64,000 nucleotides of DNA from positions 1 to 64,000 of the forward strand of contig JAFTUC010000010.1 in the NCBI GenBank assembly GCA_017466445.1, written 5' to 3'. The notes beneath the pieces were generated by a model, which saw only the letters and a program-made list of their open reading frames with translations, was not told the DNA's origin and ran no database searches. The translations under genes and the position numbers were made by a program. Numbering within the stretch: the stretch's first letter is position 1; each line of letters starts with the position of its first letter. Below are positions 309 to 21,091 of the stretch, piece after piece. Source of the DNA: Clostridia bacterium. GTDB lineage: Bacteria; Bacillota; Clostridia; Oscillospirales; CAG-272.

Positions 309-1952
309 TCAGTATACTCTTATCTTAGTCATAACAAGCGATCCGCAAGAAAATTCTTCGCCCGGAGCGGGGTTGTTGACGTAATAAATACATCCGTCTT
401 TATCCACGAAAAATGCCGGGCTGTACGAGCTTCTGTGCTTATCTGTTTTTTTGACAGGAATGGGGTTTTCGATTGCAACGAAGCTTTTTCCGTAGTCAAA
501 GCTCATAAATAGGTCGCATTTGGAATCGGTTTTGGAATCAAGACCGTCCAGTGCGCAGAGGAACAAAACCCCGTCTTCACCGCCCGCGGGAGTCCAAGCC
601 ATTCCGGGACCCGATTCGAGTCCGACTCCATCAGGAGTCCTTACCTCGGTTCCGAGATCTGAAACCTTCCATTCCCATATATGATCCGAATATTTTATGT
701 GTATCGGCAGATTGTATCCTCCGATCTTACAGCATTCAAACGCAAGTGCCCATTTTCCGTTGCCCATTTTAGTGAGCGCGACCATTCCGACGCCGTACTC
801 CTTATCGCCCGTAACGCTATAGGTTTTGCTCCAGTTTACAAGATCTGTCGTATATCTGAACGCAAGCTTCTGCTCGTATTTAGGATCACTTTGGTCGGAA
901 TAAAAGCAGAAAAATCTTTTACTTTCCTCATCATACTGAAGGAAAGGCTCCCATATTCCATCCTTGAGCCATCTGTCCTGGTTATTAACGCCACCCTCGG
1001 CTATTTCGCTTATTCCCTTCCAGCTTTCCCCGAGATCGACAGAATGTGCAAGGATAAGAACGGTACGCCACGGACTGTAAACGCATGCACTGAAAAGGAT
1101 AGTTCCTTTTTTATACTCACCTACGTCTGCAGGAAGCTCGTAAAGATATGGCTGATATCCCGGAGATGCGTCTTTAGCTATGTCATTCCGGTAAGGCTTT
1201 AATACCTCCCAAGTCTCTCCGTCATCCATACTACGGTATATCGACCAAGGATTCAGGTTGATATTTTCATTCGTTGCAATCAAAACACCGTTGTTTTTAG
1301 GATCCGGCTGATGCTCAAGCTTTATTATTTTCGGATAAGATCTCCACTCGGTATCGTTTGTATCATAGGGGCTAAATATCGTACTCATTCTTTCAAGAAC
1401 GACGACCTGTCCGTCAGGTCCAACGGTAAGAACCTGTCCTGAGTTACCGATCTTTGTCATATCGCCCCTTTCAAGACTGAGTCTGCCCTTATATTTTGAC
1501 GGTGCTACGTACGCAAGAATGAAGCGTCTTACCGCAAGTGCAGTATAATTATCGTTTTTTCCGAGCAATATTATCTTGTTTCCGACCGTCTTTATCATAA
1601 TAACCTTATCGTCTTTCTTCTCGGAAAGCTCGGCATAAGCGTCAATGCTCTCCTGTCTGTTTGTCCGACCGACAAGTATCTCATATTCTACGGCATCAAG
1701 ATCAACATCGATGGCGACAGGCACTTCGGCAGATGTATACTTAAATATTTGTTTTCTGAGATTTGCTGCCGCAGTAACGGTAGTGCGCTCGCACATATCG
1801 GGACGTATCACGGTATATTTACTGATATCAATAAGATTTTCGTCCACCTTATCGGTATCATTCTTCTTTTTATTACCGTTATTACCGCTGCATCCTACAA
1901 AGGATGATATAAAGAGTACGAGTGCGAGTAAAACAGAAATGTATTTTTTCAT
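309..1952 (-). CDS. GH93-like propeller glycosidase lipoprotein, array copy 1
   Basis: This 547-residue lipoprotein has signal peptide residues 1-20 and a lipobox ending at Cys21. A small alpha/beta domain (about 40-165) carries the EILVGRTNR motif. A six-bladed propeller follows, with Asp-boxes at 241-248, 304-311 and 484-491. The pair Glu335 (in WEPF) and Glu406 (in WALAFE) is 71 residues apart, close to the catalytic Glu pair I recall for fungal GH93 exo-arabinanases. The usual RPGM motif before the second Glu reads GVGM here, as in copy 2, which may alter the active site. It is the last gene of a unit shared with copy 2, 9 bases downstream of it. The enzyme family is an inference; a sialidase-like annotation is possible, but no FRIP motif is seen. 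Confidence 0.8.
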   Translation of the reverse strand: MKKYISVLLALVLFISSFVGCSGNNGNKKKNDTDKVDENLIDISKYTVIRPDMCERTTVTAAANLRKQIFKYTSAEVPVAIDVDLDAVEYEILVGRTNRQESIDAYAELSEKKDDKVIMIKTVGNKIILLGKNDNYTALAVRRFILAYVAPSKYKGRLSLERGDMTKIGNSGQVLTVGPDGQVVVLERMSTIFSPYDTNDTEWRSYPKIIKLEHQPDPKNNGVLIATNENINLNPWSIYRSMDDGETWEVLKPYRNDIAKDASPGYQPYLYELPADVGEYKKGTILFSACVYSPWRTVLILAHSVDLGESWKGISEIAEGGVNNQDRWLKDGIWEPFLQYDEESKRFFCFYSDQSDPKYEQKLAFRYTTDLVNWSKTYSVTGDKEYGVGMVALTKMGNGKWALAFECCKIGGYNLPIHIKYSDHIWEWKVSDLGTEVRTPDGVGLESGPGMAWTPAGGEDGVLFLCALDGLDSKTDSKCDLFMSFDYGKSFVAIENPIPVKKTDKHRSSYSPAFFVDKDGCIYYVNNPAPGEEFSCGSLVMTKIRVY

Positions 1953-1961
1953 ATGATTACC

Positions 1962-3611
1962 TCAATATACGACTATTTTCGCCATTTCAAGCTTTCCGGA
2001 TACAAGTCCTGACGCAAGCGGAGGATTGTTTATATAATAGATTGCGCCCTCTTTATCGACATAAAATCCGGGACTGTACGAGCTTTTATTTGCGTCGTCT
2101 TTCTTCACATTCAAGGGATTTTTGACAGAAACAAAGCTGTTTCCGTAATCAAAGCTAAAGAAAAGGTCACATTTTGATCCGGTAGTCGATCGCATCCCCT
2201 TATAAGCGCACAAGACGATAACACCCTTATCTCCTCCTGCCGGTGACCATACCATTGAAGGTGCACATTCAAGTCCTATGCCTCGGTTATCTCTTACCTC
2301 TTTACCGAGATCGGGCACATTCCACGTATCGAGCCTATCCGTATACTTGATATGAACGGGTAGAGTGATCTCGCCGATCTTACAGCATTCAAATGCGAGC
2401 GCCCATTTTCCGTTGCCCATTTTCGTAAGTGCGACCATTCCCACTCCGTAGTTAACGTCACCGGTTACACTATAGGTATCGCTCCAATTTACAAGGTCTG
2501 TCGTATATCTGTACGCAAGCTTCTGCTCATATTTCGGATCACTTTCGTCCGAATAAAAGCAATAAAGCCTTTTGGTTTCCTCGTCGTAGATTATAACAGG
2601 CTCCCATACGCCATCCTGCTCCCAGCGATCGGGAGCGTCGGTTCCGCCCTCAACGATCTCACCTATACCTTTCCAAGTTTCCCCGAGATCGGTAGATCCT
2701 GCGATGATCAATGCTGTACGGCTTGCATTATATACACAAGCGCTGAAAAGAACAGTTCCCTTTTTGTACGCGCCGACATCTGCAGGAAGCTCGAAAAGAT
2801 ATGGCTGATATCCGGGAGATGCATCGGTCGCTACATCATTTCGGTATGGATCCAAAACCTCCCAGGTCTCTCCGTCATCCTTGCTGCGATATAAAGACCA
2901 GGGTCTCATCTTGGTATTTTCATTTGTCGCGATCAAGACACCGTTATTTTTAGGGTCGGGCTGATTTTCAAGCTTGATTATCTTCGGATAGGTACGCTCC
3001 TCGATATCAAAAACGTTATCCGGATCAAATACGGTACTCTTTTTTTCAAGAACGACTATCTGTCCGTCAGGTCCGACGGTAAGTATCTCTCCCGCCGTTC
3101 CGATCTTAGTCATATTCTCCCTTTTAAGGCTCAGCCTGCCCTCATATTTTGACGGTGCTACGTACGCAAGAATGAAGCGCTTCACCGCAAGTGCGGTATA
3201 GTTATCGTCAGAGCCAAGTATAACTATCTTATTTCCGACGACCTTTATTATAAGTGCCTGCGAGTTCTTCTTTTTCGAAAGCTCGGCATATGCGTCAGCG
3301 CTTTCCTTTCTGTCAGTCTTTCCAACAAGGATCTCATATACGTCAGACTCCGTATCAGAATCGATTGCAACCTGTACATCGGCACCCGTGTACTTAAGCA
3401 GATCTGCTTTAAGGTTTGAAACAGATTTTATAACTGCGTTGTCGCAGACGTCGGGACGGATTATCTTATAAATACCGATGTCGATAAAATTATCGTAGGT
3501 CGCTTTTTCATTGCTACTGTTTTCGTTTTTCCTAAAAGAACACCCGCAAAGGGATCCCAAAACTGTTACAAAAACGAGAAGCAACGAGATCAACAAAGAA
3601 ACTTTTTTCAT
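1962..3611 (-). CDS. GH93-like propeller glycosidase lipoprotein, array copy 2
   Basis: 549 residues; lipobox LCGC with Cys24. It has the same architecture as copy 1: an N-terminal alpha/beta domain with EILVGKTDR, then a propeller with Asp-boxes at 243-250 and 306-313 and one near the C-terminus. The candidate catalytic pair is Glu337 and Glu408. Like copy 1 it reads YGVGM where most copies read RPGM, so the two form a recent sub-branch. The start is supported by AAAGGAG upstream. It is the first gene after an internal promoter and is probably co-transcribed with copy 1. It is predicted to be anchored on the outer face of the membrane and to act on an oligosaccharide. Confidence 0.8.
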   Translation of the reverse strand: MKKVSLLISLLLVFVTVLGSLCGCSFRKNENSSNEKATYDNFIDIGIYKIIRPDVCDNAVIKSVSNLKADLLKYTGADVQVAIDSDTESDVYEILVGKTDRKESADAYAELSKKKNSQALIIKVVGNKIVILGSDDNYTALAVKRFILAYVAPSKYEGRLSLKRENMTKIGTAGEILTVGPDGQIVVLEKKSTVFDPDNVFDIEERTYPKIIKLENQPDPKNNGVLIATNENTKMRPWSLYRSKDDGETWEVLDPYRNDVATDASPGYQPYLFELPADVGAYKKGTVLFSACVYNASRTALIIAGSTDLGETWKGIGEIVEGGTDAPDRWEQDGVWEPVIIYDEETKRLYCFYSDESDPKYEQKLAYRYTTDLVNWSDTYSVTGDVNYGVGMVALTKMGNGKWALAFECCKIGEITLPVHIKYTDRLDTWNVPDLGKEVRDNRGIGLECAPSMVWSPAGGDKGVIVLCAYKGMRSTTGSKCDLFFSFDYGNSFVSVKNPLNVKKDDANKSSYSPGFYVDKEGAIYYINNPPLASGLVSGKLEMAKIVVY

Positions 3612-3648
3612 ATTTCAAACTCCTTTTATAATTTTAGAGCACATAATA

Positions 3649-3677
3649 ATTATATATCAGTAAAAAAACACGGTCAA
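3649..3677 (-). promoter_or_regulatory. Promoter of array copies 2-1
   Basis: On the minus strand TTGACC (3677-3672) and TATAAT (3654-3649) are separated by exactly 17 bases, in the 144-base gap before copy 2. This is the widest gap within this part of the array. Confidence 0.8.
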
Positions 3678-3755
3678 TATATTATGATGTGAAAAAAGTA
3701 ACATTTTGTGTAATCTGAAAAGCGACCTACGATTCAAAAAATATATTTCAGAAGA

Positions 3756-5381
3756 TCAATATACCATTATCTTTGCCATATCGACTCTTCCCGCATTAAG
3801 TCCCTTGACGAGTGCGGGATTATTTACGTAATATACGGCACCGTCCTTATCGGTATAGAATCCGGGGCTGTAGGAGCACTTATGCTTTGCGTCCTTCATA
3901 ACGGCAAGAGGATTTTCTATGGAAACAAAGGTTTTACCGTAATCGAAGCTCATAAAGAGGTCACATCTTGAATCGGTTTTCGAGTTTATATTCTTATACG
4001 CGCAAAGGAAGAGAACACCGTCTCCGCCTCCCGCGGGAGTCCATGTCATTGCGGGTCCCGACTCAAGCGAAACGCCCGTAGTGCTTACTACCTGTGTTCC
4101 GGCACTGATCGATTTCCAAGAATCAAGCTTATCAGCGAACATTATACGAACGGGATATCCTGCTTGTCCGGAGGTCCAGTATTCAAATGCGAGAGCCCAT
4201 TTTCCGTTACCCATCTTGGTAAGAGCTACCATTCCGGGACGGTTAGGACCTGATGTTACCATATCGCCTATCTCGCTCCAAGTCTTAAGGTCGGTTGTAT
4301 ACTTATAGATAAGTCTCTGATTGTGGAAGCTATCCTGCTCATCCGAATAGAAGCAGTATATCCTTCCATTCTCATATGCAATTACGGGTTCCCAAACTCC
4401 GTTGGTGTTAGGTCCTCCGATAGTGACGTTGCCAAGGCTCTTCCACGTCTCACCAAGATCGGTGCTACAGAGCATGATTATAGCGGTCTGAGAACCATTA
4501 TAGGTACATGCGGCGAAGAGAATAGTTCCCTTTTTGTATTCTCCAACATCCTCAGGAAGCTCAAAAAGATAGGGCTGATATCCCGCAAACCATCCGTTTA
4601 CAAGATCGGGGATAGACTTTAAATTCTCCCAAGTATCACCGTCATCCTTACTTCTGTACATAGGCCATGGACTCGGAGAGGCAAATTCGTTGGTTGCGAG
4701 AAGAATTCCGTTGTTTTTTTCGTCAGGCTGATGTTCAAGCTTGATTATCTTGGCATAAGAGCGCGCGTGAGTATCGCCATAGTTATCGGTTTTAAATACA
4801 GTACTCTTTTTGTCAAGGACTACTACAGAACCGATCTCACTGACATAAAGAACTTCCCCGTTCTTACCGAATTTGGTAGTATCTCCCTTTTCGAGGTAAA
4901 GACATTTTTCCTTCGTCGATTTAGAAACGAATGCGTTTATAAACTGCTTTACGCCGAGAGCAGTATAGTCCTCGGTGTGCCCGAGAATAACTATCTTACT
5001 TCCGACAACCTTTATAACGTATCCTTCTTTTTTGATCTTTCCTTTAAGCTCTACAAGAGCATCCACGCTTTCCTTACGGTTAGTTTCACCTACAAGGATC
5101 TCACATTCGACCTCGGTCTCATCGTCCATAGCGACAGTAAGATCAAGCTTAACATTGTCGTTTATGCTCTTCTTCAAAACGGAGGTCATATTTCTTACAG
5201 TGTCTCCCGAAGCAGCCGAACGTACGATCGTATAACCGCTTACATCGAGATAGTCAATGTTATCTTCTTTAGGTTTGTCGTTATTTTCGTCTTTGTTTTT
5301 GTTATTTCCGCTTGCGGAACATGCCGACAGAATACCGGTGAGCATCACAAGCGCAAGAATAAGTGATAAGAATTTTTTCAT
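3756..5381 (-). CDS. GH93-like propeller glycosidase lipoprotein, array copy 3
   Basis: 541 residues. I chose the ATG at 5381 rather than the one at 5396, because the upstream ATG overlaps the GGAG that lies 9 bases before the internal ATG. The signal peptide ends in lipobox LSAC with Cys21. The N-terminal domain carries EILVGETNR. The propeller has Asp-boxes at 244-251 and 306-313 and a C-terminal SFDYGKTF. Candidate catalytic residues are Glu331 (WEPV) and Glu400 (ALAFE), and RPGM is intact. It is the last gene of the copy 9-3 unit, with no convincing terminator before the next promoter. Confidence 0.8.
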   Translation of the reverse strand: MKKFLSLILALVMLTGILSACSASGNNKNKDENNDKPKEDNIDYLDVSGYTIVRSAASGDTVRNMTSVLKKSINDNVKLDLTVAMDDETEVECEILVGETNRKESVDALVELKGKIKKEGYVIKVVGSKIVILGHTEDYTALGVKQFINAFVSKSTKEKCLYLEKGDTTKFGKNGEVLYVSEIGSVVVLDKKSTVFKTDNYGDTHARSYAKIIKLEHQPDEKNNGILLATNEFASPSPWPMYRSKDDGDTWENLKSIPDLVNGWFAGYQPYLFELPEDVGEYKKGTILFAACTYNGSQTAIIMLCSTDLGETWKSLGNVTIGGPNTNGVWEPVIAYENGRIYCFYSDEQDSFHNQRLIYKYTTDLKTWSEIGDMVTSGPNRPGMVALTKMGNGKWALAFEYWTSGQAGYPVRIMFADKLDSWKSISAGTQVVSTTGVSLESGPAMTWTPAGGGDGVLFLCAYKNINSKTDSRCDLFMSFDYGKTFVSIENPLAVMKDAKHKCSYSPGFYTDKDGAVYYVNNPALVKGLNAGRVDMAKIMVY

Positions 5382-5417
5382 GCTGCATTTCTCCATAACT
5401 TATTATTTTTATTATCA

Positions 5418-6911
5418 TCAGTACATCTTAAGCTTAGCAGACATAAGCTTTCCGGCAGCCGTATCAAATGCCACCCCGGGATTATTTGCGTAATATACGC
5501 TTCCCTGCTTATCTACGTAAAATCCGGGGCTGTAAGAGGTCTTGTTTAAATGTCCCTCAAGTACCGGAAGAGGATTATCGACCGAGACAAAGGTCTGTCC
5601 GTAATCGAAGCTGAGGAAGAAGTCGCATCTGAACCTTGTCTTGACCCCTGCGTTTCTCATAGCGGTAACTATAAGAGTTCCGCAATCTCCACCGTCGGGA
5701 GTCCATGCTGCTGCAGGACTTGAGATCATAAACTTGCCCTCTCCATCGGTCAGGAGTTTTCCCTCATCATTTGTCTTCCACGAGTCGAGCGAGTCGGCAA
5801 AGGTGATATACACAGGCCAACCGTCCGCACCCTGCTTCCAGAGCTCGAATGCATGCGCCCACTTTCCGTTACCCATCTTCGCAAGCGCGATCATTCCGGG
5901 ACGGCAGTTTCCAAGAGCGATCATATCACAAATCTCGCTCCAGTTTTCAAGATCGGTGGTATATCTGTACACAAGCTTCTGATTATGAGCGGGATCGGTC
6001 TCGTCCGAATAGAAGCAGTAGAGTCTTTTCGTCTCCGGCTCATATACAAGGAAGGGTTCCCATATGCCTTCTCTTCCGTCACGTCCTACCGCAACGTTAC
6101 ATATTCCCTTCCAGCTCTCACCGAGATCGGTAGAATGGGAAAGGAACATGATCGTCTTTCCGAATCCGTAGGTACATCCCGCAAAAAGGATGGTTCCCTT
6201 TTTATAATGACCAATGTCCGCGGGAAGCTCATAGAGATATGGCTGATATCCCGGTATATTGGAGGTGTTTATATCGTCGGGAACGCCCGAAAGCTTTTCC
6301 CACGTCGATCCGTCATCCTTACTGCGGTAAATATCCCAAGGATTGCGCTTTACGTTTTCGTTGGAGGCGAGGAGTATGCCGTTATTCTCCTCGTTTTCCT
6401 GATTTTCAAGCTTGATTATCTTTGCGTAAGAGCACCAGTTATGATCAAAAAGCTCAGGGGTCTCGTATATGGTATTGATCTTTTCGAGAACGAGAGACTC
6501 GTAATTTTCACCCATATAAATGACAGCGCCCGTTCTTTTTATAAAGAACTCCTCGACAGAAAGAATCGCTCCGTCGAGTGACTTTTTGAGGTACTCACTT
6601 ATAAAATATCTGATTCCGAGAATAGTATCGTTATCGTTTTTTCCCGCGATATGAAGCTTATTTCCGTCAAAGGCTATGACAAACGATTTTTCTTTGATCT
6701 TTGGGAAAAGCTCATTACTGCCTGCTCTTGAGGTCTTTCCGACAAGTATCTCAAAATCATTTTCTTTTTCGGTGTCCTTGTAGATATCAAGCTCGACACA
6801 GGAATACTTCTCGATATTTTTCTTGAGATAATTCGCTGCCCCGACAAGCTTTTCAGACGCTTCTGCAAAAAATACGATCGAATATTTCGTAAGATCTACA
6901 CTGGTTTTCAT
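5418..6911 (-). CDS. GH93-like glycosidase without signal peptide, array copy 4
   Basis: 497 residues starting directly at the N-terminal alpha/beta domain, with EILVGKTSR at about 54-62. There is no hydrophobic leader or lipobox. The ATG has AGGTGA 6 bases upstream, so the leaderless form looks genuine rather than miscalled. The candidate catalytic pair is Glu285 and Glu356, with RPGM intact. The protein is predicted to be cytoplasmic and might hydrolyse imported oligosaccharides. It keeps the N-terminal domain, unlike leaderless copies 5 and 13, so export and N-domain loss are independent events. Confidence 0.78.
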   Translation of the reverse strand: MKTSVDLTKYSIVFFAEASEKLVGAANYLKKNIEKYSCVELDIYKDTEKENDFEILVGKTSRAGSNELFPKIKEKSFVIAFDGNKLHIAGKNDNDTILGIRYFISEYLKKSLDGAILSVEEFFIKRTGAVIYMGENYESLVLEKINTIYETPELFDHNWCSYAKIIKLENQENEENNGILLASNENVKRNPWDIYRSKDDGSTWEKLSGVPDDINTSNIPGYQPYLYELPADIGHYKKGTILFAGCTYGFGKTIMFLSHSTDLGESWKGICNVAVGRDGREGIWEPFLVYEPETKRLYCFYSDETDPAHNQKLVYRYTTDLENWSEICDMIALGNCRPGMIALAKMGNGKWAHAFELWKQGADGWPVYITFADSLDSWKTNDEGKLLTDGEGKFMISSPAAAWTPDGGDCGTLIVTAMRNAGVKTRFRCDFFLSFDYGQTFVSVDNPLPVLEGHLNKTSYSPGFYVDKQGSVYYANNPGVAFDTAAGKLMSAKLKMY

Positions 6912-6929: not shown

Positions 6930-8069
6930 TTATTTTTTTGCACTGAGCTTTGCAAAAACGAGCTTTTCGCATACCGCTCCCTTATCGTATTCAGGATCGT
7001 TTACGTAATAAACGTATCCGTCCTTATCTACGAAAAATCCCGAGCTGTATCCGCTTCTTACGGAAGAATTTGGCATAGCCGGTATAGGATTTTCAACAGA
7101 CATAAATGTCTCGCCGTAATCATAGCTTACAAAAAGCGCACACTGAGTTGCTGTATCGGTCTTCCAATCGTAAACTGCGGTTATCATAAGAGTTCCGCAC
7201 TCTCCTCCGTCGGGAGTCCATGCAATAGCCGGCGCCCCCGCAAGTCCGCCTCCCTGAGCATTGAGTACGGGCTTACCGCGCTCGGTAGGCTCCCAGCTTT
7301 CAAGGGAGTCGGAGAATTTGATATGGACCTGCGCGTGAGGATCAAAATTGACCATCTCGTACACCATTGCATATTTTCCGTTACCCATTTTTGTAAAGGC
7401 GATCATTCCGGGACGAAGCTCTTTGAGCGTGAGAACGTCTATTTCTTCACTCCAGTTTACAACGTCGGTAGAATATTTGCAGATAAGTCTTTGATTGTGC
7501 TCGGGATTCTGCTCGTCGGAATAGTAGCAGTAAAGCTTGCCCGACTCGTCGTCGAAGTACATAAAGGGCTCCCATACACCTTGGCTGGTCCAACCGCCCT
7601 GGTTATATCCTCCGCCCATACCGATGTTGCAAACACCTTCCCAAGAAACTCCGAGATCACGGCTCGCAAAGAGAACGATATTGGTCTTCGTACCCGAATA
7701 GGAGCATCCGGAATAAAGGATAGTTCCCTTTTTATAATCTCCCATATCAGTAGGAAGCTCTATCATATAAGGCTGATATCCGGGAAAGCAATCGGTATTG
7801 ATAGAATCGGGGATCGAAGAAAATTCCTCCCAGCTGTCACCGTCATCATAGCTTCTGTAGAGAGCCCAGTTCTTGGTCTCGGAATTCTCATTCGTCGCAA
7901 TGAGAATTCCGTTATTTTCGCCATTATGCTCGAGCTTTATTATCTTTCCGTAAGTATAGCATTTTTTTGACGTTATGTCATCCGGTATTTTTATATCTAT
8001 CATTTTTTCACGAATGAGAGGTGTGTGAATACCGTCGTTACATACTACCTTTTGGTTGAAATCTTTCAT
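6930..8069 (-). CDS. GH93-like glycosidase, catalytic domain only, array copy 5
   Basis: 379 residues. Both the signal peptide and the N-terminal alpha/beta domain are absent, and the propeller begins at about residue 38. Asp-boxes read SYDDGDSW (73-80), SRDLGVSW and SYDYGETF. Candidate catalytic residues are Glu167 and Glu238, 71 apart, with RPGM intact. AAGGAG lies 10 bases before the ATG, supporting this start. It is probably cytoplasmic. Gaps of about 20 bases on both sides place it inside the copy 9-3 transcript, so lipoprotein and cytoplasmic forms would be made together. Confidence 0.78.
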   Translation of the reverse strand: MKDFNQKVVCNDGIHTPLIREKMIDIKIPDDITSKKCYTYGKIIKLEHNGENNGILIATNENSETKNWALYRSYDDGDSWEEFSSIPDSINTDCFPGYQPYMIELPTDMGDYKKGTILYSGCSYSGTKTNIVLFASRDLGVSWEGVCNIGMGGGYNQGGWTSQGVWEPFMYFDDESGKLYCYYSDEQNPEHNQRLICKYSTDVVNWSEEIDVLTLKELRPGMIAFTKMGNGKYAMVYEMVNFDPHAQVHIKFSDSLESWEPTERGKPVLNAQGGGLAGAPAIAWTPDGGECGTLMITAVYDWKTDTATQCALFVSYDYGETFMSVENPIPAMPNSSVRSGYSSGFFVDKDGYVYYVNDPEYDKGAVCEKLVFAKLSAKK

Positions 8070-9749: not shown

Positions 9750-9782
9750 TTTGATTTCCTTTCGTAAATGTATCATCATATC

Positions 9783-13105: not shown

Positions 13106-14779
13106 TTAATACACCTTAATTCTCGCGAACATAAGCTTTTCGTTAAAAGAATTTCGGTAGCATTCGGGATTATTGACGTAATATATAGTTCCTTCACTGT
13201 CAACGTAGAATCCGGGACTGTATCCGCTCTTTACCATATCGTTAACCATGTTGGGTATCGGATTTTCGATAGTGACAAAGGTCTTGCCGTAGTCGAAACT
13301 GAGGAAAAGTCCACACTTTGTCTTTGTTGAAGGAACACGGTCACTGTTTGAGGTAACGATAAGTGTTCCGCAGTCTCCTCCGTTTGGGGTCCAGATTATT
13401 GCGGGACCCGATGCCATTCCCTTACCGCTTACGCTGTCAAGAACAAGCTTTCCTTTATCGGTCGGATCCCAATCGGAAAGTGAATCGGAAATCTTTATAT
13501 GTATATCGCAGCCATAACCCTTACCGCACATCTCGTATGCAAGCGCAAATTTCCCGTTACCCATTTTGGTAAGTGCGACCATTCCGGGACGAAGCTCGGG
13601 ATTTTCAAGCGATACCATATCGTGTTTGGTGCTCCAGGACTTAAGATCCGTGGTATATTTGTAAACAAGTCTTTGATTATGTCCGCCGACATGATTTTCT
13701 CCCACTCCGTTTTCAAGCTCGTCGGAATAGTAGCAGTAAAGTCTGCCGGTCTCCTTCTCGTACATAAGTACCGGCTCCCAAAGTCCGTCGCTCGACCAAT
13801 CTCCTTGATTATAGCATCCGCCGATCTCAACATTTCCGATAGGCTCCCATGTGATTCCGAAATCGGTGGTCGCCTGAACGAATATGTATGTCGTCTCCTT
13901 GGCACCTCTACGGCTGCATCCTGCAAATAGGATGGTCCCTGCCGGATATTTTCCCATAGCCTCGGGCAGCTCATAAAGATACGGCTGATATCCCGGGATG
14001 TTACCATTATTTACGTAATCATAAAGAGGTGCCATCTTTTCCCAGGTCTTTCCGTCATCGTCAGACCTGAACATCTGCCACGGGAAGGTATTATTATTTT
14101 GGCTTACCGCAAAAAGAACGCCGTTATTCTTTTCATTCTTCTGATGCTCGAGCTTTATGATCTTACCGTAGGAATAGGTGGTTTCATCCGTAATACGCTC
14201 TTCGATATCGCAAAGCTCCTCGAGAACAACTGTCTCAAAATTCGGACCTACGTATAAGACCTCGCCCGTTTTTTTCATAAGAGTACGCGGTCCCGCCTCA
14301 AGCGCAAGATGCTTTTCTATCTTTGACGGCTTTACAAAGGATTTTATAAATTCCTTAACACCTATAATCGTATCCTCGTCAGAAAGTCCGTATATAACGA
14401 TCTTTTTGTCGGTAACTACGATGGTATAGGCTTCCTTTTTCGTTTTATCCGAAAGCGCTTTAGCCGCCGCTTTTACCTCCTCACGATCGGATTTTCCGAT
14501 CAGTATCTCATACTCGGACTCCTCGTCATCATCAATAGAGACCGCAAGATCCGCCTTAGTATTTTCGAGAATACTGTTTTTAAGAAAGGACGTAAGCTTT
14601 ATAATACTGCTTGATGCAGTATATGGACGAACTATTTTGTACAGGCTGAGATCGATATAATTTTTTGCTTCATCATTACCGTCTTTTCCGTTATCCTTTG
14701 ATTTATTACCCGATGCACATCCGGTAAAAGCAGAAAGACAGAAGATCAGCGCCACAAAAATTGAGAGAATTCTTTTCAT
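13106..14779 (-). CDS. GH93-like propeller glycosidase lipoprotein, array copy 9
   Basis: 557 residues; lipobox FTGC, Cys21. The N-terminal domain carries EILIGKSDR, with a KIVIYG strand after it. The propeller has Asp-box SDDDGKTW (239-246) and candidate Glu335 (LWEPV) and Glu416 (ALAYE). The spacing between them is 81 rather than 71, because of an insertion around residues 355-365 (NGVGENHVGG). It is the first gene of the copy 9-3 transcript, immediately downstream of a consensus promoter. It shares its last about 20 residues almost exactly with copy 8. Confidence 0.8.
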   Translation of the reverse strand: MKRILSIFVALIFCLSAFTGCASGNKSKDNGKDGNDEAKNYIDLSLYKIVRPYTASSSIIKLTSFLKNSILENTKADLAVSIDDDEESEYEILIGKSDREEVKAAAKALSDKTKKEAYTIVVTDKKIVIYGLSDEDTIIGVKEFIKSFVKPSKIEKHLALEAGPRTLMKKTGEVLYVGPNFETVVLEELCDIEERITDETTYSYGKIIKLEHQKNEKNNGVLFAVSQNNNTFPWQMFRSDDDGKTWEKMAPLYDYVNNGNIPGYQPYLYELPEAMGKYPAGTILFAGCSRRGAKETTYIFVQATTDFGITWEPIGNVEIGGCYNQGDWSSDGLWEPVLMYEKETGRLYCYYSDELENGVGENHVGGHNQRLVYKYTTDLKSWSTKHDMVSLENPELRPGMVALTKMGNGKFALAYEMCGKGYGCDIHIKISDSLSDWDPTDKGKLVLDSVSGKGMASGPAIIWTPNGGDCGTLIVTSNSDRVPSTKTKCGLFLSFDYGKTFVTIENPIPNMVNDMVKSGYSPGFYVDSEGTIYYVNNPECYRNSFNEKLMFARIKVY

Positions 14780-14821
14780 TGCAAAATCAAACCTTTCATC
14801 AATGATTGGAACACTATTTTC

Positions 14822-14850
14822 AGTATACCTGTTTCGAAAAACATTGTCAA
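14822..14850 (-). promoter_or_regulatory. Promoter of array copies 9-3
   Basis: On the minus strand TTGACA (14850-14845) and TATACT (14827-14822) are 17 bases apart, about 40 bases upstream of copy 9. The -35 hexamer overlaps the end of the inverted repeat at 14849-14876. Confidence 0.85.
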
Positions 14851-14876: not shown

Positions 14877-14910
14877 CACGCAGTTATTGTACTCAAATAA
14901 AAATTGGGAA

Positions 14911-16569
14911 TTATTTTATTTCAATTTTAACGAAGTTAATATCGTGACCCTGCTTGAATTTATTAAGGGGATTATTTACGTAGTAAAGTGTTTTTCCGTC
15001 TTTCGAGAAGACCACGCACGGGCTATATCCGCAGTGCGTTTCTTCTGCCTTAAGATCGTACGGGATCGGGTTATCTATTGCAACGAACGTCTCGCCGTAA
15101 TCAAAGCTGAGGAACATCTTTGCGCCTTTATCGGTAACGTGATAAGGAACGGGATGCTTACCGACAACAACGAGAGTTCCGCACGCACCGCCTACGGGCG
15201 ACCATGCACACCAGGGACCCGAGCCGGTCGAATGTCCGTCCGTGCTCTTTACGGGCTTACCGTAATCAGCGGGATCACCCCAGTTGTCAAGATCCTTGGT
15301 CTTCTTATAATATACCTGAACATCGGGAATGCCCGATGCCATCATTTCATAGGTCATAAGATATCCGCCCTCACCCATATCCACGACCGAGGTCATTCCG
15401 GGACGGTATCCTTTATTGGAGCAGGCTACGGCATCCTTAGGGTCTACGTCAACGCCGACCTTATCGTCCTTACCGTGCCAGTTCTCAAGATCGGTAGAAT
15501 ACTTATATGCAAGCTTCTGACTATGATCGGGATCGCTATCGTCCGAATAGAAGCAGTAAAGTCTGTCTCGCTCTTCCTCATATATAAGGTAAGGCTCCCA
15601 AACACCTTCTCCTCCGCCACCGCCGAGATCAACGTTGCAAACGGTCTCCCATGTCTTACCGCCATCGGTACTTGCGTGAATAGTTATGGTGCTTACTGTA
15701 AATGTGTCCTTTTCATTTTTTGAAGTTCCGGCAAGAAGAACGGTTCCTGCCTTATATTTTCCCATATCTACGGGAAGCTCGTAAAGATGAGGCATCCATT
15801 CCGCTACGTAGCCCTTATTGAGCGTATCTGTAACGGTCGAGAACTGATGCCATGTTGCACCTCCGTCGGTGCTTCTGTGAATAGTATATTTATACGAATA
15901 ATTTTCGTAAGTAGCAAGCAGCGTTCCGTCGCTGAGAGGAACGATCTTGGAATACTGAATAAGTCCGGTAGCAAGATCATCTCTGTTGGTGACAGATACC
16001 TTTTTACCTATCGATATTTCGGTAAACGAATCAAAAAGCATGGATTTTGAGTTTGCTACAGCGTTTTTTTCAAAATCCGACTTCATATTGATAGTCTTTC
16101 CGCCCTTGGAGGTATATACCGCTTCATCAAGGAAATCCTTAAGTGCCTTCATGGTAGTATCTTCGGTCTTACCGAGGATGACTATTTTGTTACCGGAAAC
16201 ACGGATAGTATAGTACGTATCCTTTTCAAGAATCTTTACAAGATCGGCAGATTCCTTACGGTTGGTGCTTCCGATAAGAATCTCTTTAGCGTTCGGATCG
16301 GCTTTTTGATCTGTATCGATAACTACCTGAAGATCCGCTCCGGTATTATCGGCAACTATCTTTTTGAAGTTCTTGATATAATTCAAATATTCGTTTGCAA
16401 GAGTTGACGGTCTTACGATCTTATATTCGCTAATATCAAATCCGTCGACCTTATTGTCCTCACTTTTGTCGTCGTTTGCTTTTTTTGATCCATCCGTGCA
16501 GGATACGAGGATAGCGGCTATCATTGTCACGAGAAGAATCAGCGAAAGCAGTTTTTTTATCAGTTTCAT
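14911..16569 (-). CDS. GH93-like propeller glycosidase lipoprotein, array copy 10
   Basis: 552 residues from the ATG at 16569, with AAAGGAG 9 bases before it; the ATG at 16590 is upstream of that site. Lipobox LVSC, Cys24. This copy and 11-13 form a second subfamily whose first strand reads L-DGTLLATYENY instead of KLEHQ...NNG-LIATNE. The N-terminal domain has EILIGSTNR. Asp-boxes read STDGGATW (233-240) and STDGGKTW. Candidate catalytic pair Glu325 and Glu408 is 83 apart, because this subfamily has a longer loop (GVDVDPKDAVAC) before RPGM. It is the last gene of the transketolase-headed unit. Confidence 0.8.
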   Translation of the reverse strand: MKLIKKLLSLILLVTMIAAILVSCTDGSKKANDDKSEDNKVDGFDISEYKIVRPSTLANEYLNYIKNFKKIVADNTGADLQVVIDTDQKADPNAKEILIGSTNRKESADLVKILEKDTYYTIRVSGNKIVILGKTEDTTMKALKDFLDEAVYTSKGGKTINMKSDFEKNAVANSKSMLFDSFTEISIGKKVSVTNRDDLATGLIQYSKIVPLSDGTLLATYENYSYKYTIHRSTDGGATWHQFSTVTDTLNKGYVAEWMPHLYELPVDMGKYKAGTVLLAGTSKNEKDTFTVSTITIHASTDGGKTWETVCNVDLGGGGGEGVWEPYLIYEEERDRLYCFYSDDSDPDHSQKLAYKYSTDLENWHGKDDKVGVDVDPKDAVACSNKGYRPGMTSVVDMGEGGYLMTYEMMASGIPDVQVYYKKTKDLDNWGDPADYGKPVKSTDGHSTGSGPWCAWSPVGGACGTLVVVGKHPVPYHVTDKGAKMFLSFDYGETFVAIDNPIPYDLKAEETHCGYSPCVVFSKDGKTLYYVNNPLNKFKQGHDINFVKIEIK

Positions 16570-16613
16570 AAAAATGTACTCCTTTATCATTTGTTTATGT
16601 ATTTTTTAAGCAA

Positions 16614-18269
16614 TCATCTTATCTTTATCTTAGCAAGAACGATCTCCTGGCAGTTTCCGAGCTTAAGCAGCGGATTGTTTACGTAATAAAGTGTCTTTCC
16701 GTCCTGTGAAAAGAGCAGGCACGGACTGTAGCCGCATCTGTCTACGTTATACGGAATAGGATTGTCTATAGATACAAATGTTTCACCGTAATCAAAGCTG
16801 AGAAGCATCTTGGCACCCTTTGTTGTACTGTAATAAGGGGATGGATGCTTGCCTACAACGACAAGAGTTCCGCAGTCGCCGCCTCCCTCGGGAGTCCACG
16901 CACACCAAGACGAGGATCCGAACGAATCCTTGCCGCATGCCACGGGTTTTCCGTAATCGGAAACATCACCCCAATCATCAAGATCCATAGTTTTTTTGCA
17001 GTGTGTCTGAAGATCGGGAAGTCCTACCATTTCGTAGGTCATTATATATCCGCCCTTTCCCATATCGGCAATCGATATCATTCCGGGACGGAATTTGGGA
17101 TTATCGCATGCTACGGCTTCTTTTGGATCAATATCTACTCCGACCTTATCATCCTTGCCGTACCAATTTTTAAGATCTGTCGTATATTTGTAAACGAGCT
17201 TTTGATCGTGATCGCCTTCTACGTTCTTACCACTATCGTCAGAATAGAAGCAGTAAAGTCTGCCTCGCTTTGCCTCGTAGATAAGAAATGGCTCCCATAT
17301 TCCGAGATCATCTACGATTCCGGGTGCCTCGTCTACGTTGCATATAGTGTTCCAAGTTAGGCCCTTATCGGTGCTTGCGTGAAGCGTGATCGTGCTTTTA
17401 TCAAATCTATCCTTTTCGTTTTTAGACGTACCTGCCAGAATGACCGTACCCGCCTTATATTCTCCCATATCTACGGGAAGCTCGTAAAGCATTGGCATCC
17501 ATTCGGCTATGTACGGTGTACCTGTGATTTCCTTGTTCAAGGTATCCTTTACCGAAGAAATTTTTTCCCATGTCTTTCCGTCATCGGTGCTTCGGTGAAT
17601 ATTATAAGCAAATCCGTAATTTTCGTAAGTAGCGAGAAGAGTTCCGTCACTAAGTCTTACTATAGAGGGATACTGTATTATTCCGGTAACCCATTCTCCC
17701 GGATTAAAGACCGAATATTTTCCCTCGATCTCAAACTCGGTGAAATTATCGAAAATTATCGAATCAAGATTCGCAATTCCCTTCTTTTGATAACCTGCAT
17801 CGAGATTTATGTGCGAGTCACCCTTGGAGGCCCTTGCGTTATTCTGAAGAAAATCCTTCATTGCTCTTACTGTCGCATCATCTGTCTTTCCGATTATAAC
17901 GATCTTATTTCCAACAGATTCGACGATATAATGATTATCATTTTTCAGCAGAGCATATGCATCCAAAGATTCCTTTCGGTTAGTCTTACCAAGAAGGATT
18001 TCCTTATTTTCATCGGCGCTCTTCACGTCAGAATCGATAGCAACACTAAGATCCGCGCCGGTATAATTAAAAAGGCATTTTTTAAAGTTCGAGGTATACG
18101 AATAAAAGGACGGCGCCGCCGCATCCGAACGCACTATCGTATAGCCGCTTATATCAAATCCGGTCGGCTTTTCTGTATCATCCGCTTTTTCTTTAGTTGG
18201 ATTTTTACATGCCGCAAAAAGTGAAAGTACCATTACAGCAACAAAAATCGCGCAAATTATCCTTTTCAT
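16614..18269 (-). CDS. GH93-like propeller glycosidase lipoprotein, array copy 11
   Basis: 551 residues; lipobox FAAC, Cys21; GGAAGGAG upstream of the ATG. The N-terminal domain has EILLGKTNR at about 90-98 and KIVIIG. The first propeller strand reads YPSIVRLSDGTLLATYENYG. Candidate catalytic residues are Glu326 (IWEPF) and Glu413 (IMTYE). The spacing of 87 is the longest in the array. RPGM is intact. Its sequence belongs with copies 10, 12 and 13. Probably a surface-anchored exo-acting arabinan hydrolase; substrate not demonstrable from sequence. Confidence 0.8.
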   Translation of the reverse strand: MKRIICAIFVAVMVLSLFAACKNPTKEKADDTEKPTGFDISGYTIVRSDAAAPSFYSYTSNFKKCLFNYTGADLSVAIDSDVKSADENKEILLGKTNRKESLDAYALLKNDNHYIVESVGNKIVIIGKTDDATVRAMKDFLQNNARASKGDSHINLDAGYQKKGIANLDSIIFDNFTEFEIEGKYSVFNPGEWVTGIIQYPSIVRLSDGTLLATYENYGFAYNIHRSTDDGKTWEKISSVKDTLNKEITGTPYIAEWMPMLYELPVDMGEYKAGTVILAGTSKNEKDRFDKSTITLHASTDKGLTWNTICNVDEAPGIVDDLGIWEPFLIYEAKRGRLYCFYSDDSGKNVEGDHDQKLVYKYTTDLKNWYGKDDKVGVDIDPKEAVACDNPKFRPGMISIADMGKGGYIMTYEMVGLPDLQTHCKKTMDLDDWGDVSDYGKPVACGKDSFGSSSWCAWTPEGGGDCGTLVVVGKHPSPYYSTTKGAKMLLSFDYGETFVSIDNPIPYNVDRCGYSPCLLFSQDGKTLYYVNNPLLKLGNCQEIVLAKIKIR

Positions 18270-18308
18270 TGTTTTTTCTCCTTCCGAGATAAGTTACTAC
18301 TGTTTAGA

Positions 18309-19940
18309 TCACCAGATCTTTATCTTTGCCATAACGACCTTCTGACAGGTACCGAGTCCGAACAGAGGGTTGTTTGTGTAATAAAGTGTCTTTCCGTCAT
18401 GTGAGAAGACTACGCAGGGACTGTATCCGGATTTTTCTACGTTATACGGAATAGGATTATCGATAGCAATAAAGGTCTCACCGTAGTCGAAGCTGAGCAG
18501 CATTTTTGCGCCCTTACCTGTGGAATAAAAAGGAACGGGATGTCTTCCTATAACCACAAGGGTTCCGCACTTTCCGCCGCCTTCGGGAGTCCACGCGCAC
18601 CATGGAGATGATCCAAAGGAATTATTTCCGGGCGCAGCCACCGGCTTGCCGTAATCGGCAGGATCTCCCCAGTCATCGAGATCCATCGTTTTCTTATAAT
18701 ATGCCTGAACGTCGGGAATGCCCGATGCCATCATCTCATAGGTCATAATGTATCCGCCCTCACCCATGTCGGCGATCGATATCATTCCGGGACGCCATGA
18801 TTTGTTAGGACAAGCAACTGCAAGCTTTGGCTCTACCTCCACTCCTACCTCATCGTTTACACCGTGCCAATTTTTAAGATCGGTCGTGTACTTATAGACG
18901 AGAGACTGACTGTATTCGGGATCGCTGTCATCCGAATAGAAGCAGTAAAGTCTTCCTCTCTTTTCTTCATATACAAGGAAGGGCTCCCATACGCCTTCGT
19001 TTGACCATCCTCCGACATCAACGTTACATATTGTATTCCAGGTCTCGCCCTTATCCGTACTTGCGTGAAGAGTTATCTTAGTTTCGGTTATAGGATCGTA
19101 TGCAGTACTTGAGGTTCCCGCCAGAATTGCAGTTCCCGCTTTATATTCTCCCATATCTACGGGAAGAGTATAGAGATGCGGCATCAGCTCTCCCTCAAAT
19201 CCGCTATTCAGCGTATCCGTAACCTTTGAACAGTACTCCCACGTTTTTCCGTTATCCGTACTTCTGTAGATATTGCAGCCTCCGCTGTAATTTTCATATG
19301 TCGCCAGAAGTGTTCCGTCAAGAAGCTCTGTTACCTTAGTATATTGGATCACGCCCACGGCAGAAAGTGAGGGTACCATTATATCACTTGTGTATTCATG
19401 ATAAAATTCGGTAAAATTGTCAAAAAGTATAGAGTCAAGGTTAGCAACACCGTTATTTGAATAACCTTCCTCAATGTCTATATAACCGTCACCTTTAGAG
19501 GTTTTGACGCAGGAATCGAGAAAGACCTTAATCGCTCTTGCGGTAGTTTCCTCGGTCTTTCCGGCGATAACGATCTTTCCGTTTACCATTTTTATTACAA
19601 ATCGGTTATCCTCATTCAGCTGTGCGAATGCTTCGGTGGATTCCGTTCTGTTAGTATTACCGAGAAGAATCTCCTTAGGCTCGGGATCGTAGTCGCCGTC
19701 AAACTTGACCGTGAGACTTTTTCCGGTATATTCCTCGATCATACTATGAAAGTTTGAAACATACTTCGCAAACGCAGCTCCCGATTTATCCGAACGTATT
19801 ATGGAATACTCGCTTATATCGAGTCCCGTATGTGTAGGATCATCCTTCTTGTCGTCTTTTTTCTTGTCGCCACATGATGCTAACAGAAAAGCGGAGACAA
19901 TCATACACACCGCAATTATAACGGATAAGATTCTTCTCAT
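18309..19940 (-). CDS. GH93-like propeller glycosidase lipoprotein, array copy 12
   Basis: 543 residues; lipobox LASC, Cys23; AAGGAG upstream of the ATG. The N-terminal domain has EILLGNTNR and KIVIAG. Asp-boxes read STDNGKTW (226-233) and STDKGETW. Candidate catalytic residues are Glu319 and Glu402. Its first strand reads YTKVTELLDGTLLATYENY, slightly degenerate compared with copies 11 and 13. The start lies only 2 bases after the stop of copy 13 (TAAATATG), so translation of the two is probably coupled. Confidence 0.8.
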   Translation of the reverse strand: MRRILSVIIAVCMIVSAFLLASCGDKKKDDKKDDPTHTGLDISEYSIIRSDKSGAAFAKYVSNFHSMIEEYTGKSLTVKFDGDYDPEPKEILLGNTNRTESTEAFAQLNEDNRFVIKMVNGKIVIAGKTEETTARAIKVFLDSCVKTSKGDGYIDIEEGYSNNGVANLDSILFDNFTEFYHEYTSDIMVPSLSAVGVIQYTKVTELLDGTLLATYENYSGGCNIYRSTDNGKTWEYCSKVTDTLNSGFEGELMPHLYTLPVDMGEYKAGTAILAGTSSTAYDPITETKITLHASTDKGETWNTICNVDVGGWSNEGVWEPFLVYEEKRGRLYCFYSDDSDPEYSQSLVYKYTTDLKNWHGVNDEVGVEVEPKLAVACPNKSWRPGMISIADMGEGGYIMTYEMMASGIPDVQAYYKKTMDLDDWGDPADYGKPVAAPGNNSFGSSPWCAWTPEGGGKCGTLVVIGRHPVPFYSTGKGAKMLLSFDYGETFIAIDNPIPYNVEKSGYSPCVVFSHDGKTLYYTNNPLFGLGTCQKVVMAKIKIW

Positions 19941-19942
19941 AT

Positions 19943-21091
19943 TTAATTCTCCTTAGCTTTCAAAAGCTTGTTCTCTATTCTTATTTTCTTGAGTACTATC
20001 TCGTGACACTTTTCGGTAGGAATAAGAGTATTACCGACATAATAAAGTATCTCTCCGTCAGGTGAAAAGAAGAGGCACGGACTGTACCCGCAGTGCGTTT
20101 CCTTAGCGCGCAGGGGGTATGGGATAGGATTATCAAGTGCCGTAAAACTTTTACCGTAATCAAAGCTTACAAGCATCTTGGCACCCGCTTCGGTGTGATA
20201 ATAAGGAGCGGGATGCTTTCCGACTACAACGAGAGTTCCGCACTCTCCGCCACAGGGCGACCAAGCACACCACGGAGAGGCTCCAAAGGACCGCCCGTCA
20301 GTGCTTATTACCTGCGTTCCGTAATCGTTTATATCTCCCCAATCATCAAGATCAAAGGTCTTTTTGCAAAAAACGGGAAGATCTCTGAGTCTGTCGACCT
20401 CATAGGTCATTATATATTCGCCGTTACCCATTTTCGCTATGGAGATCATTCCGGGTCTGAGGTTATGATCCGCGCATTCAACAGCATCCTTCGGCTCGCA
20501 CTCGACTCCTATCTGTCCGTCCTTTCCAACCCAATTCTTGAGATCGGTGGTATACTTGTACACAAGCTTTTGTCCGACTGCGAACGCGCTGTCATCCGAA
20601 TAGAAGCAGTAAAGTCTTCCGCGCTCCTCTTCATAAATGAGGAATGGCTCCCAAACACCCCAACCGCCGCCTCCGCCGATATCGACGTTACAAACGGTAG
20701 ACCACGTAGCACCCTTATCTGTGCTTGCGTGGAGAGTTATCGTGCTTATATCGAAGGTGTCCTTCTGATTTTTGGAGGTACCGGCAAGAATGACCGTTCC
20801 TGCCTTATAATCTCCCATATCAACGGGAAGCTCATAAAGGTGTGGCATCCATTCTGCCACGTATCCTACGTTAAGGGTATCGGTAACCGTGGAAAATCTT
20901 TCCCACGTTATACCGTCGTCAAGGCTTCTGTGAATAATATACTTCCATCCGTAGTTTTCGTAGGTCGCAAGCAGAGTTCCGTCGGAAAGACGTACCATGG
21001 ACGGGTATTGTATGATCCCGACAGAGCCGTCCGCAGGACGTACCACCGAGCTTCTGGATTCGACTATTACGCTTATATCGTTATGATTCAT
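19943..21091 (-). CDS. GH93-like glycosidase, catalytic domain only, array copy 13
   Basis: 382 residues with no signal peptide and no N-terminal domain. The propeller starts at about residue 26 (IIQYPSMVRLSDG). AGGAGG lies 9 bases before the ATG, so the short form is real. Asp-boxes are SLDDGITW (56-63), STDKGATW and SFDYGKSF. Candidate catalytic residues are Glu148 (VWEPF) and Glu231 (IMTYE), 83 apart. It is the first glycosidase after the transketolase genes, 36 bases downstream of tktC. A cytoplasmic enzyme releasing pentose next to a pentose-phosphate enzyme is a coherent arrangement, but this is inference. Confidence 0.78.
   Translation of the reverse strand: MNHNDISVIVESRSSVVRPADGSVGIIQYPSMVRLSDGTLLATYENYGWKYIIHRSLDDGITWERFSTVTDTLNVGYVAEWMPHLYELPVDMGDYKAGTVILAGTSKNQKDTFDISTITLHASTDKGATWSTVCNVDIGGGGGWGVWEPFLIYEEERGRLYCFYSDDSAFAVGQKLVYKYTTDLKNWVGKDGQIGVECEPKDAVECADHNLRPGMISIAKMGNGEYIMTYEVDRLRDLPVFCKKTFDLDDWGDINDYGTQVISTDGRSFGASPWCAWSPCGGECGTLVVVGKHPAPYYHTEAGAKMLVSFDYGKSFTALDNPIPYPLRAKETHCGYSPCLFFSPDGEILYYVGNTLIPTEKCHEIVLKKIRIENKLLKAKEN

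What the first reader, a model, noticed from the sequence alone, without database searches (positions are those of the whole stretch)
309..21091. Thirteen tandem paralogues of a GH93-like propeller glycosidase
About 20.8 kb is one run of homologous genes on one strand. Direct observation: every intact copy keeps a WEP Glu and a second Glu in an [AM]xxE strand end, 69-71 residues apart in most copies (81-87 where a loop is inserted), with RPGM shortly before the second. I recall E170 and E242 as the catalytic pair of fungal exo-arabinanase Arb93A (spacing 72). The FRIP motif of sialidases is absent. The inference is a locally expanded set of exo-arabinanases. Such copy number in one array is unusual to my knowledge.
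Basis: partly seen in the sequence, partly recalled or inferred. Interest (0 to 1): 0.8.

Follow-up and report, generated by a model that had tools for sequence, protein, structure and literature searches.

The report
Tandem array of bacterial GH93 arabinanases
A probable gut bacterium carries thirteen side-by-side copies (one broken) of an enzyme best known from fungi that trims the plant sugar polymer arabinan, and the four genomes examined from its genus have multiplied these genes repeatedly, which suggests a specialist in arabinan breakdown.

Summary
Observation confirmed. Twelve intact GH93-like genes and one frameshifted copy lie head to tail at 309-21091, minus strand. All 13 keep both catalytic Glu and a third catalytic residue, Tyr; RPGM is in 10 of 13, not all. 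Profiles place them in GH93 (solved exo-arabinanases 3a71, 2w5n: E 6e-92, 5e-89), far ahead of GH33. Ten copies have a signal peptide of lipoprotein type; three do not. Eleven carry an N-terminal domain absent from 23 of 23 GH93s outside the genus and found on unrelated enzymes in relatives. The array follows a split transketolase, an order seen in three of four genus genomes. The four genomes hold 81 GH93 domains (17-26 each); strong matches occur in 12 of 391 other family genomes and 6 of 390 other class genomes sampled. The window array grew in its own lineage; another array grew in two sister species, and copies there are kept as 1:1 orthologues (dN/dS 0.06-0.17). GH51 arabinofuranosidase genes stand beside GH93 genes in 6 of 16 cases (0.45 expected), in three lineages, none in the window's own genome. 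Exo-arabinanase array supported by homology and context; activity, fold and co-transcription untested.

The parts
309..1952 (-). GH93 paralogue g1; lipoprotein-type signal + N-domain + GH93; RPGM replaced by GVGM
1962..3611 (-). GH93 paralogue g2; signal peptide + N-domain + GH93; sister of g1, also GVGM
3756..5396 (-). GH93 paralogue g3; lipoprotein-type signal + N-domain + GH93
5418..6911 (-). GH93 paralogue g4; N-domain but no signal peptide seen (cytosolic by inference)
6930..8069 (-). GH93 paralogue g5; catalytic domain only, no signal seen (cytosolic by inference)
8094..9779 (-). GH93 paralogue g6; lipoprotein-type signal; most recent duplicate with g7 (90% identical proteins, dS 0.28)
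9783..11420 (-). GH93 paralogue g7; lipoprotein-type signal
11454..13078 (-). one frameshifted GH93 copy read as two ORFs (11454-12422 catalytic part, 12317-13078 signal + N-domain)
13106..14779 (-). GH93 paralogue g10; lipoprotein-type signal; reference for residue numbers (E335, E416, Y520)
14911..16590 (-). GH93 paralogue g11; lipoprotein-type signal; second clade with g12-g14
16614..18269 (-). GH93 paralogue g12; lipoprotein-type signal
18309..19940 (-). GH93 paralogue g13; lipoprotein-type signal
19943..21091 (-). GH93 paralogue g14; catalytic domain only, no signal seen (cytosolic by inference); next to transketolase
21128..22075 (-). transketolase C-terminal half, 36 bp upstream of g14
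   Evidence: Pfam PF02779/PF02780; same order in relatives
22077..22913 (-). transketolase N-terminal half; first gene of the run
   Evidence: Pfam PF00456
23011..23039 (-). promoter-like site, 12 of 12 with TG before the second hexamer, upstream of transketolase
   Evidence: consensus match only
14822..14850 (-). promoter-like site, 11 of 12, in the 131-bp gap between g11 and g10
   Evidence: consensus match only
3649..3677 (-). promoter-like site, 11 of 12, in the 144-bp gap between g3 and g2
   Evidence: consensus match only
163..192 (-). terminator-like hairpin (12 pairs) after g1
   Evidence: consensus match only
26064..30424 (+). neighbouring hexuronate genes: UxaC (26064-27455), mannitol-dehydrogenase-family oxidoreductase (27476-28942), altronate/galactarate dehydratase family (28943-30424); on the other strand, pectin-related by inference, not part of the array

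Best explanation
The array is a set of GH93 exo-alpha-1,5-L-arabinanases made by repeated tandem duplication in one lineage of a Clostridia genus from the animal gut. Ten surface lipoproteins (one of them the broken copy) would bind the non-reducing ends of pectic arabinan chains and, using the Glu/Glu pair plus Tyr, release arabinobiose or related short ends outside the cell. Imported oligosaccharides would be trimmed by the three cytosolic copies. GH51 arabinofuranosidase would finish them, and AraA, AraB and AraD plus the transketolase encoded at the head of the same gene run would feed arabinose into the pentose phosphate pathway. The copies are kept because they differ in fine specificity for chain-end structure, not for simple dosage. 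Shown: GH93 homology, conserved catalytic residues, gene layout, repeated expansion in the genus, and purifying selection on orthologues in two sister species. Inferred: arabinan as substrate, exo mode, lipoprotein anchoring and cytosolic location (signal pattern only), co-transcription, and specificity differences.
For: GH93 match 6e-92 to 3a71 and 5e-89 to 2w5n; both alignments reach the Tyr, which by count is Y337 in the Fusarium chain. E/E/Y intact in 13 of 13 window copies. Transketolase halves directly upstream of a GH93 array in G000 and G002, and the end of the C half at the very start of the G003 array contig. AraA in 4 of 4 genus genomes; araA, an FGGY kinase and a class II aldolase-family gene on the same 20-kb stretch as a GH93-GH51 pair in G002. 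GH51 domain within 1.5 kb of a GH93 domain in 6 of 16 places, 0.45 expected, P 3e-6, against 0 of 45 GH43 places; the six form three orthologous pairs (96, 77 and 72% identical) of GH51 lineages only 24-29% alike, so three independent cases, each kept in two species. dN/dS 0.06-0.17 for 17 orthologue pairs of G001 and G003. Columns where paralogues differ but orthologues agree: 33 seen, 15.3 expected. Window copies keep P266 (13 of 13) and E227 (12 of 13), typical of GH93 outside the genus (23 of 23 and 17 of 18 without a gap).
Against: No activity data and no structure model. The six GH93 enzymes in the review's Table 3 are all fungal, so bacterial specificity is extrapolated over a long distance. 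g1, g2 and the broken copy lack the RPGM Arg found in 23 of 23 outgroup GH93s. The 33 divergent columns do not cluster near the catalytic residues in sequence (4 of 33 against 13 of 139 other variable columns), and the binomial null ignores rate variation. None of the dN/dS orthologue pairs is from the window, and their dS (0.9-1.6) is near saturation. None of the six GH51 neighbours is in the window's own genome, and no GH51, araA or transporter gene was identified next to the window array (neighbours scanned only in part). G001 gave no transketolase match. Overall counts of promoter-like and terminator-like sites are little above shuffles.
Confidence: 0.74

Rival explanations
1. Gene-dosage expansion: the copies are functionally equivalent exo-arabinanases and the array only raises enzyme amount.
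For: All 13 window copies keep the same catalytic residues; g6 and g7 are a recent near-duplicate.
Against: Median identity of the 12 intact catalytic domains is only 44%. In sister species 18 of 19 G001 copies can be paired with a G003 copy in the tree (17 as two-member clades, one in an unresolved fork), and the 17 tested are under purifying selection, which equivalent copies would hardly need. Some columns differ between paralogues yet stay fixed between orthologues. The window array itself has no such orthologues to test.
Confidence: 0.15
2. GH93-fold enzymes with a different main substrate (arabinogalactan-protein, extensin hydroxyproline-arabinosides, arabinoxylan side chains, or another furanoside).
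For: Across the 81 genus copies, Pro at 266 is replaced in 35 and Glu at 227 is not seen in 52 (one a gap); nearly all of these are outside the window array (0 and 1 of 13 window copies). Four copies have Arg or His in place of the catalytic Tyr and two have Asp for the second Glu. Uncharacterised glycyl radical enzymes lie inside or beside five GH93 sites of sister species.
Against: Window copies keep the residues typical of GH93 elsewhere, and GH51 and arabinose genes point to L-arabinofuranose.
Confidence: 0.12
3. A sialidase (GH33) or other propeller family, with GH93 only a distant relative.
For: Asp-box/BNR repeats are present.
Against: The profile match to GH93 structures is more than 45 orders of magnitude better than to any other chain listed; no FRIP-like motif; Pfam BNR_2 matches are below cut-off in the copies scanned (8 of 13).
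Confidence: 0.01
4. Surface binding proteins or decoy antigens that have lost catalysis, kept for binding or surface diversity.
For: Most have a lipoprotein-type or other signal and they diverge strongly in sequence.
Against: First Glu kept in 81 of 81, second in 79 of 81; copies without a signal exist; the search of 1-23100 for inverted repeats of 20 nt or more found only two imperfect pairs, 21 and 22 nt, 8-12 kb apart.
Confidence: 0.04

Closest known systems
GH93 exo-1,5-alpha-L-arabinanases Arb93A (Fusarium graminearum) and Abnx (Penicillium chrysogenum)
   Same: Homology over nearly the whole catalytic domain, same Glu/Glu/Tyr positions, shared WEPF, RPGM and W.P.GG motifs.
   Different: The review lists the fungal GH93 enzymes at 354-365 aa without signal peptide (Table 3). 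Here most copies carry a lipoprotein-type signal and an extra N-terminal domain, some have no signal, and they occur in arrays.
GH93 genes of other Clostridia, Lachnospiraceae and Fibrobacterota found here
   Same: Same catalytic domain and residues: both Glu in 23 of 23, Tyr in 19 of 21 without a gap.
   Different: One strong place per genome in the class sample; N-domain in 0 of 23, against 66 of 81 genus copies.
N-terminal domain of GH84 O-GlcNAcase NagJ; Pfam NAGLU_N and GH20b domains
   Same: The N-domain profile matches NagJ residues 61-137 weakly (E 0.004) and NAGLU_N below cut-off.
   Different: Here it is a movable front module, also found before GDSL, metallo-beta-lactamase-fold, pectate-lyase-like, phosphatase-like, GH32/43-like and DUF4838 domains in relatives.
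[quoted passage not shown] suis (PMC10970622, abstract and passages seen)
   Same: Division of labour: extracellular arabinanase, intracellular arabinofuranosidases including GH51, ara genes.
   Different: Uses GH43 arabinanases, few copies, ABC transporter genes in the cluster; the word GH93 does not occur in its main text and Arb93A only in a figure legend.

Membership tests
GH93 | Sequence similarity to characterised GH93 clearly above any other GH family | tested here: met
   3e-58 to GH93 against 5e-12 for the best other solved chain; 6e-92 with a broader profile. dbCAN's own GH93 model was not available
GH93 | Catalytic Glu pair E170/E242 | tested here: met
   13 of 13 window copies; aligned with the two Glu of 3a71/2w5n, and entry 2ydp shows Ala at the second one
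GH93 | Third catalytic residue Y337 | tested here: met
   Aligned; Tyr in all 13 window copies, 77 of 81 genus copies
GH93 | Six-bladed beta-propeller with the Glu pair at its centre | not testable with these tools
   Structure prediction switched off; the alignment covers nearly the whole solved chain
GH93 | Exo release of arabinobiose from linear arabinan | not testable with these tools
   Needs an enzyme assay
GH33 sialidase | FRIP motif and best match to sialidases | tested here: not met
   No FRIP-like motif; sialidase hits many orders weaker
GH43 | Pfam GH43 match over cut-off | tested here: not met
   Only sub-cut-off hits: 16.0 against 32.2 bits in g5, of 8 copies scanned; 22.8 bits at C3:4062-4490 in g3

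The most novel reading that the evidence does not exclude
GH93 arrays in this genus are a diversified end-recognition kit: each paralogue is a distinct exo-enzyme tuned to a different decoration of arabinofuranosyl chain ends in plant walls, different species have grown different arrays, and some members of sister species (Tyr replaced by Arg or His, second Glu by Asp), together with the glycyl radical enzymes inside their arrays, carry out chemistry not yet described for GH93.
Probability: 0.3. Interest if true: 0.75.

Novelty: new variant of a known kind. Interest (0 to 1): 0.55.

Why it matters
The characterised GH93 enzymes in the review consulted are all fungal (six of six in its Table 3), and GH93 is rare in the bacteria sampled here. 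A bacterial genus with 17-26 copies per genome of about 1.8-2.5 Mb, in arrays that grew separately in different species, many of them held by purifying selection, offers a ready-made panel to learn what in GH93 sets specificity. It would also link one enzyme family to a narrow gut niche, pectic arabinan. The conserved pairing with transketolase and with three lineages of GH51 makes a testable pathway.

Tried and rejected
Sialidase/GH33 and GH43 readings were tested and rejected at sequence level. Assembly-repeat artefact was rejected: the intact copies are 35-89% identical and arrays recur in three other genomes. Contamination of one contig was rejected because 4 of 4 genus genomes carry the family. 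Truncation by the contig edge was judged unlikely because of the hairpin after g1. Phase variation by inversion has no support. Clustering of divergent columns near the catalytic residues was tested and not found. The idea that nearby glycyl radical enzymes are hydroxyproline dehydratases was not supported: the four uncharacterised ones scanned scored 218-274 bits against that model's cut-off of 1100, and these genomes hold many such enzymes (10-26 match places each), so closeness to GH93 is weak evidence. Pfam and NCBIfam gave no useful family name for the GH93 copies scanned (8, 3). Paper searches on GH93 with arabinan, GH93 with bacteria and rumen, exo-arabinanase with bacterial gene cluster, glycyl radical enzyme with arabinan, glycoside hydrolase family 93, Arb93A, tandem glycoside hydrolase paralogues in Oscillospiraceae, and GH93 with Firmicutes listed no title or abstract start that describes a bacterial GH93 array; the lists were capped, and only passages of PMC11813348, PMC10970622 and PMC9655821 were seen beyond listings.
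Full report
What is there. The minus strand from 21091 down to 309 carries thirteen homologous genes: twelve intact and one split by a frameshift (11454-13078). Intact copies are 379-561 aa. The last 340-360 residues of each are one homologous domain. Eleven copies carry a further N-terminal domain of about 135 residues, counting the upstream piece of the broken copy. Ten have a signal peptide of lipoprotein type: nine intact copies were flagged by a rough pattern (eight as lipobox, g2 as signal only), and that of the broken copy was read by eye. Three (g4, g5, g14) showed no signal. Intact catalytic domains are 35-89% identical, median 44%. RPGM is exact in 10 of 13.

What family. g10 and g11 alone found the solved exo-arabinanases 3a71/3a72 (Penicillium by the review) and 2ydt/2w5n (Fusarium) at E about 1e-37. 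The profile of 12 window domains gave 3e-58 to these, while the best other chain gave 5e-12 and the best one named GH33 gave 4e-11. A profile of six window domains and nine GH93 domains from other genomes gave 6e-92 and 5e-89, aligned over chain residues 9-348 of 355 in 3a71. The review gives E170, E242 and Y337 as the catalytic residues in a figure legend on 3A72. By my count these numbers fit the Fusarium chain (2w5n) with an offset of 14, and align with E335, E416 and Y520 of g10; in 3a71 the same two Glu are also 72 apart. Entry 2ydp has Ala exactly at the second Glu, as expected of a catalytic mutant (inference). Pfam and NCBIfam see only weak matches.

How widespread. The window's genome (2.09 Mb, 52 contigs, 86.6% complete, 6.3% contamination) has 17 GH93 domains; its three genus mates have 19, 19 and 26, together 81 (weak matches above 1e-60 left out). 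In 395 family genomes (at most five candidates scored per genome, so copy counts are lower bounds) strong matches (E below 1e-70) occur in these four and in 12 of the other 391, from five genera; two of those 12 genomes, both of one genus, show four and five strong places. So the closest genera also have some multiplication. In 391 class genomes six of the 390 others have a strong match (E below 1e-39), one place each. In 398 phylum genomes one besides the own reaches 1e-20. So the copy number is exceptional in these samples; eukaryotes and other phyla were not searched.

How it arose. A tree of 104 domains (81 genus, 23 others; quick method, SH-aLRT support only) puts the window copies in two groups found only in this genome: g11-g14 (support 99), and g1-g10 together with two dispersed copies on contigs C27 and C15 (support 97). 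The tree thus implies that the window array grew after this species split off from the other three. A different array, with nine copies in G003:C57 and six in G001:C65, grew before those two species parted: all six C65 copies pair with C57 copies. Genome-wide, 17 G001-G003 pairs form two-member clades and an eighteenth is likely, out of 19 G001 copies. The 17 pairs have dN/dS 0.06-0.17, the eight with a C57 member 0.10-0.13 (Nei-Gojobori; dS 0.9-1.6, near saturation). Each of these copies is thus kept by selection on its own. Columns that differ among paralogues but agree between orthologues number 33 of 344, against 15.3 expected under a simple binomial that ignores rate variation; they are not concentrated near the catalytic residues. 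Window copies keep residues typical of GH93 elsewhere (P266 in 13 of 13, E227 in 12 of 13) that other genus copies have often lost. In the genus the first Glu is kept in 81 of 81, the second in 79 (two Asp), and the Tyr in 77 (two Arg, two His).

Neighbours and gene layout. Directly upstream, in the same direction, lie the two halves of a transketolase, 36 bp from g14. The same order, transketolase N half, C half, GH93 array, is found in G002, and the end of the C half stands at the very start of the G003 contig that opens with a GH93 array. G001 has no match, perhaps for incompleteness. The three strongest minus-strand promoter-like sites between 1 and 23100 (12, 11 and 11 of 12) fall before transketolase N and in the two internal gaps over 100 bp, g11-g10 and g3-g2. 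A 12-pair terminator-like hairpin follows g1. These are consensus matches only; overall counts are 47 promoter-like sites against 40.1 (sd 6.6) in shuffles of 1-20000 and 15 against 10.0 (sd 2.8) in 19000-26100, and 22 terminator-like sites against 18.0 (sd 4.7) in 1-20000. Hexuronate genes lie nearby on the other strand. AraA is present in 4 of 4 genus genomes. In G002 one 20-kb stretch holds araA, an FGGY kinase, a class II aldolase-family gene, a GH51 gene and a GH93 gene. Of 16 GH51 places in the four genomes, six have their domain match within 1.5 kb of a GH93 domain match (0.45 expected, P 3e-6); of 45 GH43 places over cut-off none does. The six form three orthologous pairs, 96, 77 and 72% identical within a pair and 24-29% between pairs: three independent GH51 lineages, each standing beside GH93 in two species. 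None of the six is in the window's own genome.

How it most likely works. Surface copies trim arabinan ends, probably releasing arabinobiose as the fungal enzymes do (review). GH93 copies without a signal and GH51 would finish the job in the cell, and arabinose enters the pentose phosphate pathway, for which the transketolase gene is at hand. Substrate, exo mode, location and co-transcription are inferred. No transporter was identified, and none was specifically searched for.

The N-domain. It is on 66 of 81 genus copies and on 0 of 23 GH93s from outside the genus. Its profile matches the N-terminal part of GH84 O-GlcNAcase NagJ weakly (E 0.004). In other proteins of relatives it stands in front of a GDSL lipase-like domain, a metallo-beta-lactamase-fold domain, a pectate-lyase-like domain, an exo/endonuclease-phosphatase domain, a GH32/43-like domain, a BNR repeat domain and DUF4838. 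That is seven of the ten proteins scanned; two others gave nothing beyond a weak NAGLU_N match, and one (L133:7198-9561) is itself a GH93 protein. It also occurs on g4, which has no signal. So it is a movable accessory module, not merely a spacer for surface proteins; its role is unknown.

Novelty. GH93 is a known family; forms with this N-domain and a lipoprotein-type signal, and arrays of this size, are a new variant in the material I could search. The literature searches are listed under Tried and rejected; most subscription papers and CAZy itself were not available.

Noticed in passing
L118 17974-19899 (G003:C57) and L138 5056-7215 (G001:C65): A PFL-like glycyl radical enzyme sits inside the GH93 array in two sister species (82% identical to each other); it keeps a glycyl-radical-type C-terminus and a Cys-x-Glu motif (dehydratase-like by recall). 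L138 was scanned against NCBIfam and lies far under the named families' cut-offs.
   Followed up: partly
L121 9572-12327, L140 614-3351, L135 1137-4107: Other uncharacterised glycyl radical enzymes, with radical SAM activase genes beside them, lie next to GH51-GH93 or GH93 genes.
   Followed up: partly
L122 7149-8888 and L130 4598-6358; L118 9285-10994, L143 4165-5874, L119 273-1988, L138 3278-5038: GH93 paralogues conserved between species but with Asp for the second Glu (first two) or Arg/His for the catalytic Tyr (last four).
   Followed up: partly
A3 N-domain; L058-L063, L124 4081-5571, L019 14521-16515: The same N-terminal module precedes many unrelated catalytic domains in proteins of relatives.
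   Followed up: partly
window 1-150: Short G+C-rich palindromic repeat at the contig end, also seen once each in L143 and L147 among 36 fetched loci; may explain the contig break.
   Followed up: no
window 31213-33459 and 30480-31250: Ordinary pyruvate formate-lyase (formate C-acetyltransferase cut-off met) with its activase gene (212 bits against a cut-off of 231.75).
   Followed up: yes
window 23815-25875: 686-aa protein, surface-located by look of its ends, without any Pfam match at 1e-4.
   Followed up: no
window 36109-37737: Fusion of a carbon-nitrogen hydrolase domain with a glycerophosphodiester phosphodiesterase domain.
   Followed up: no
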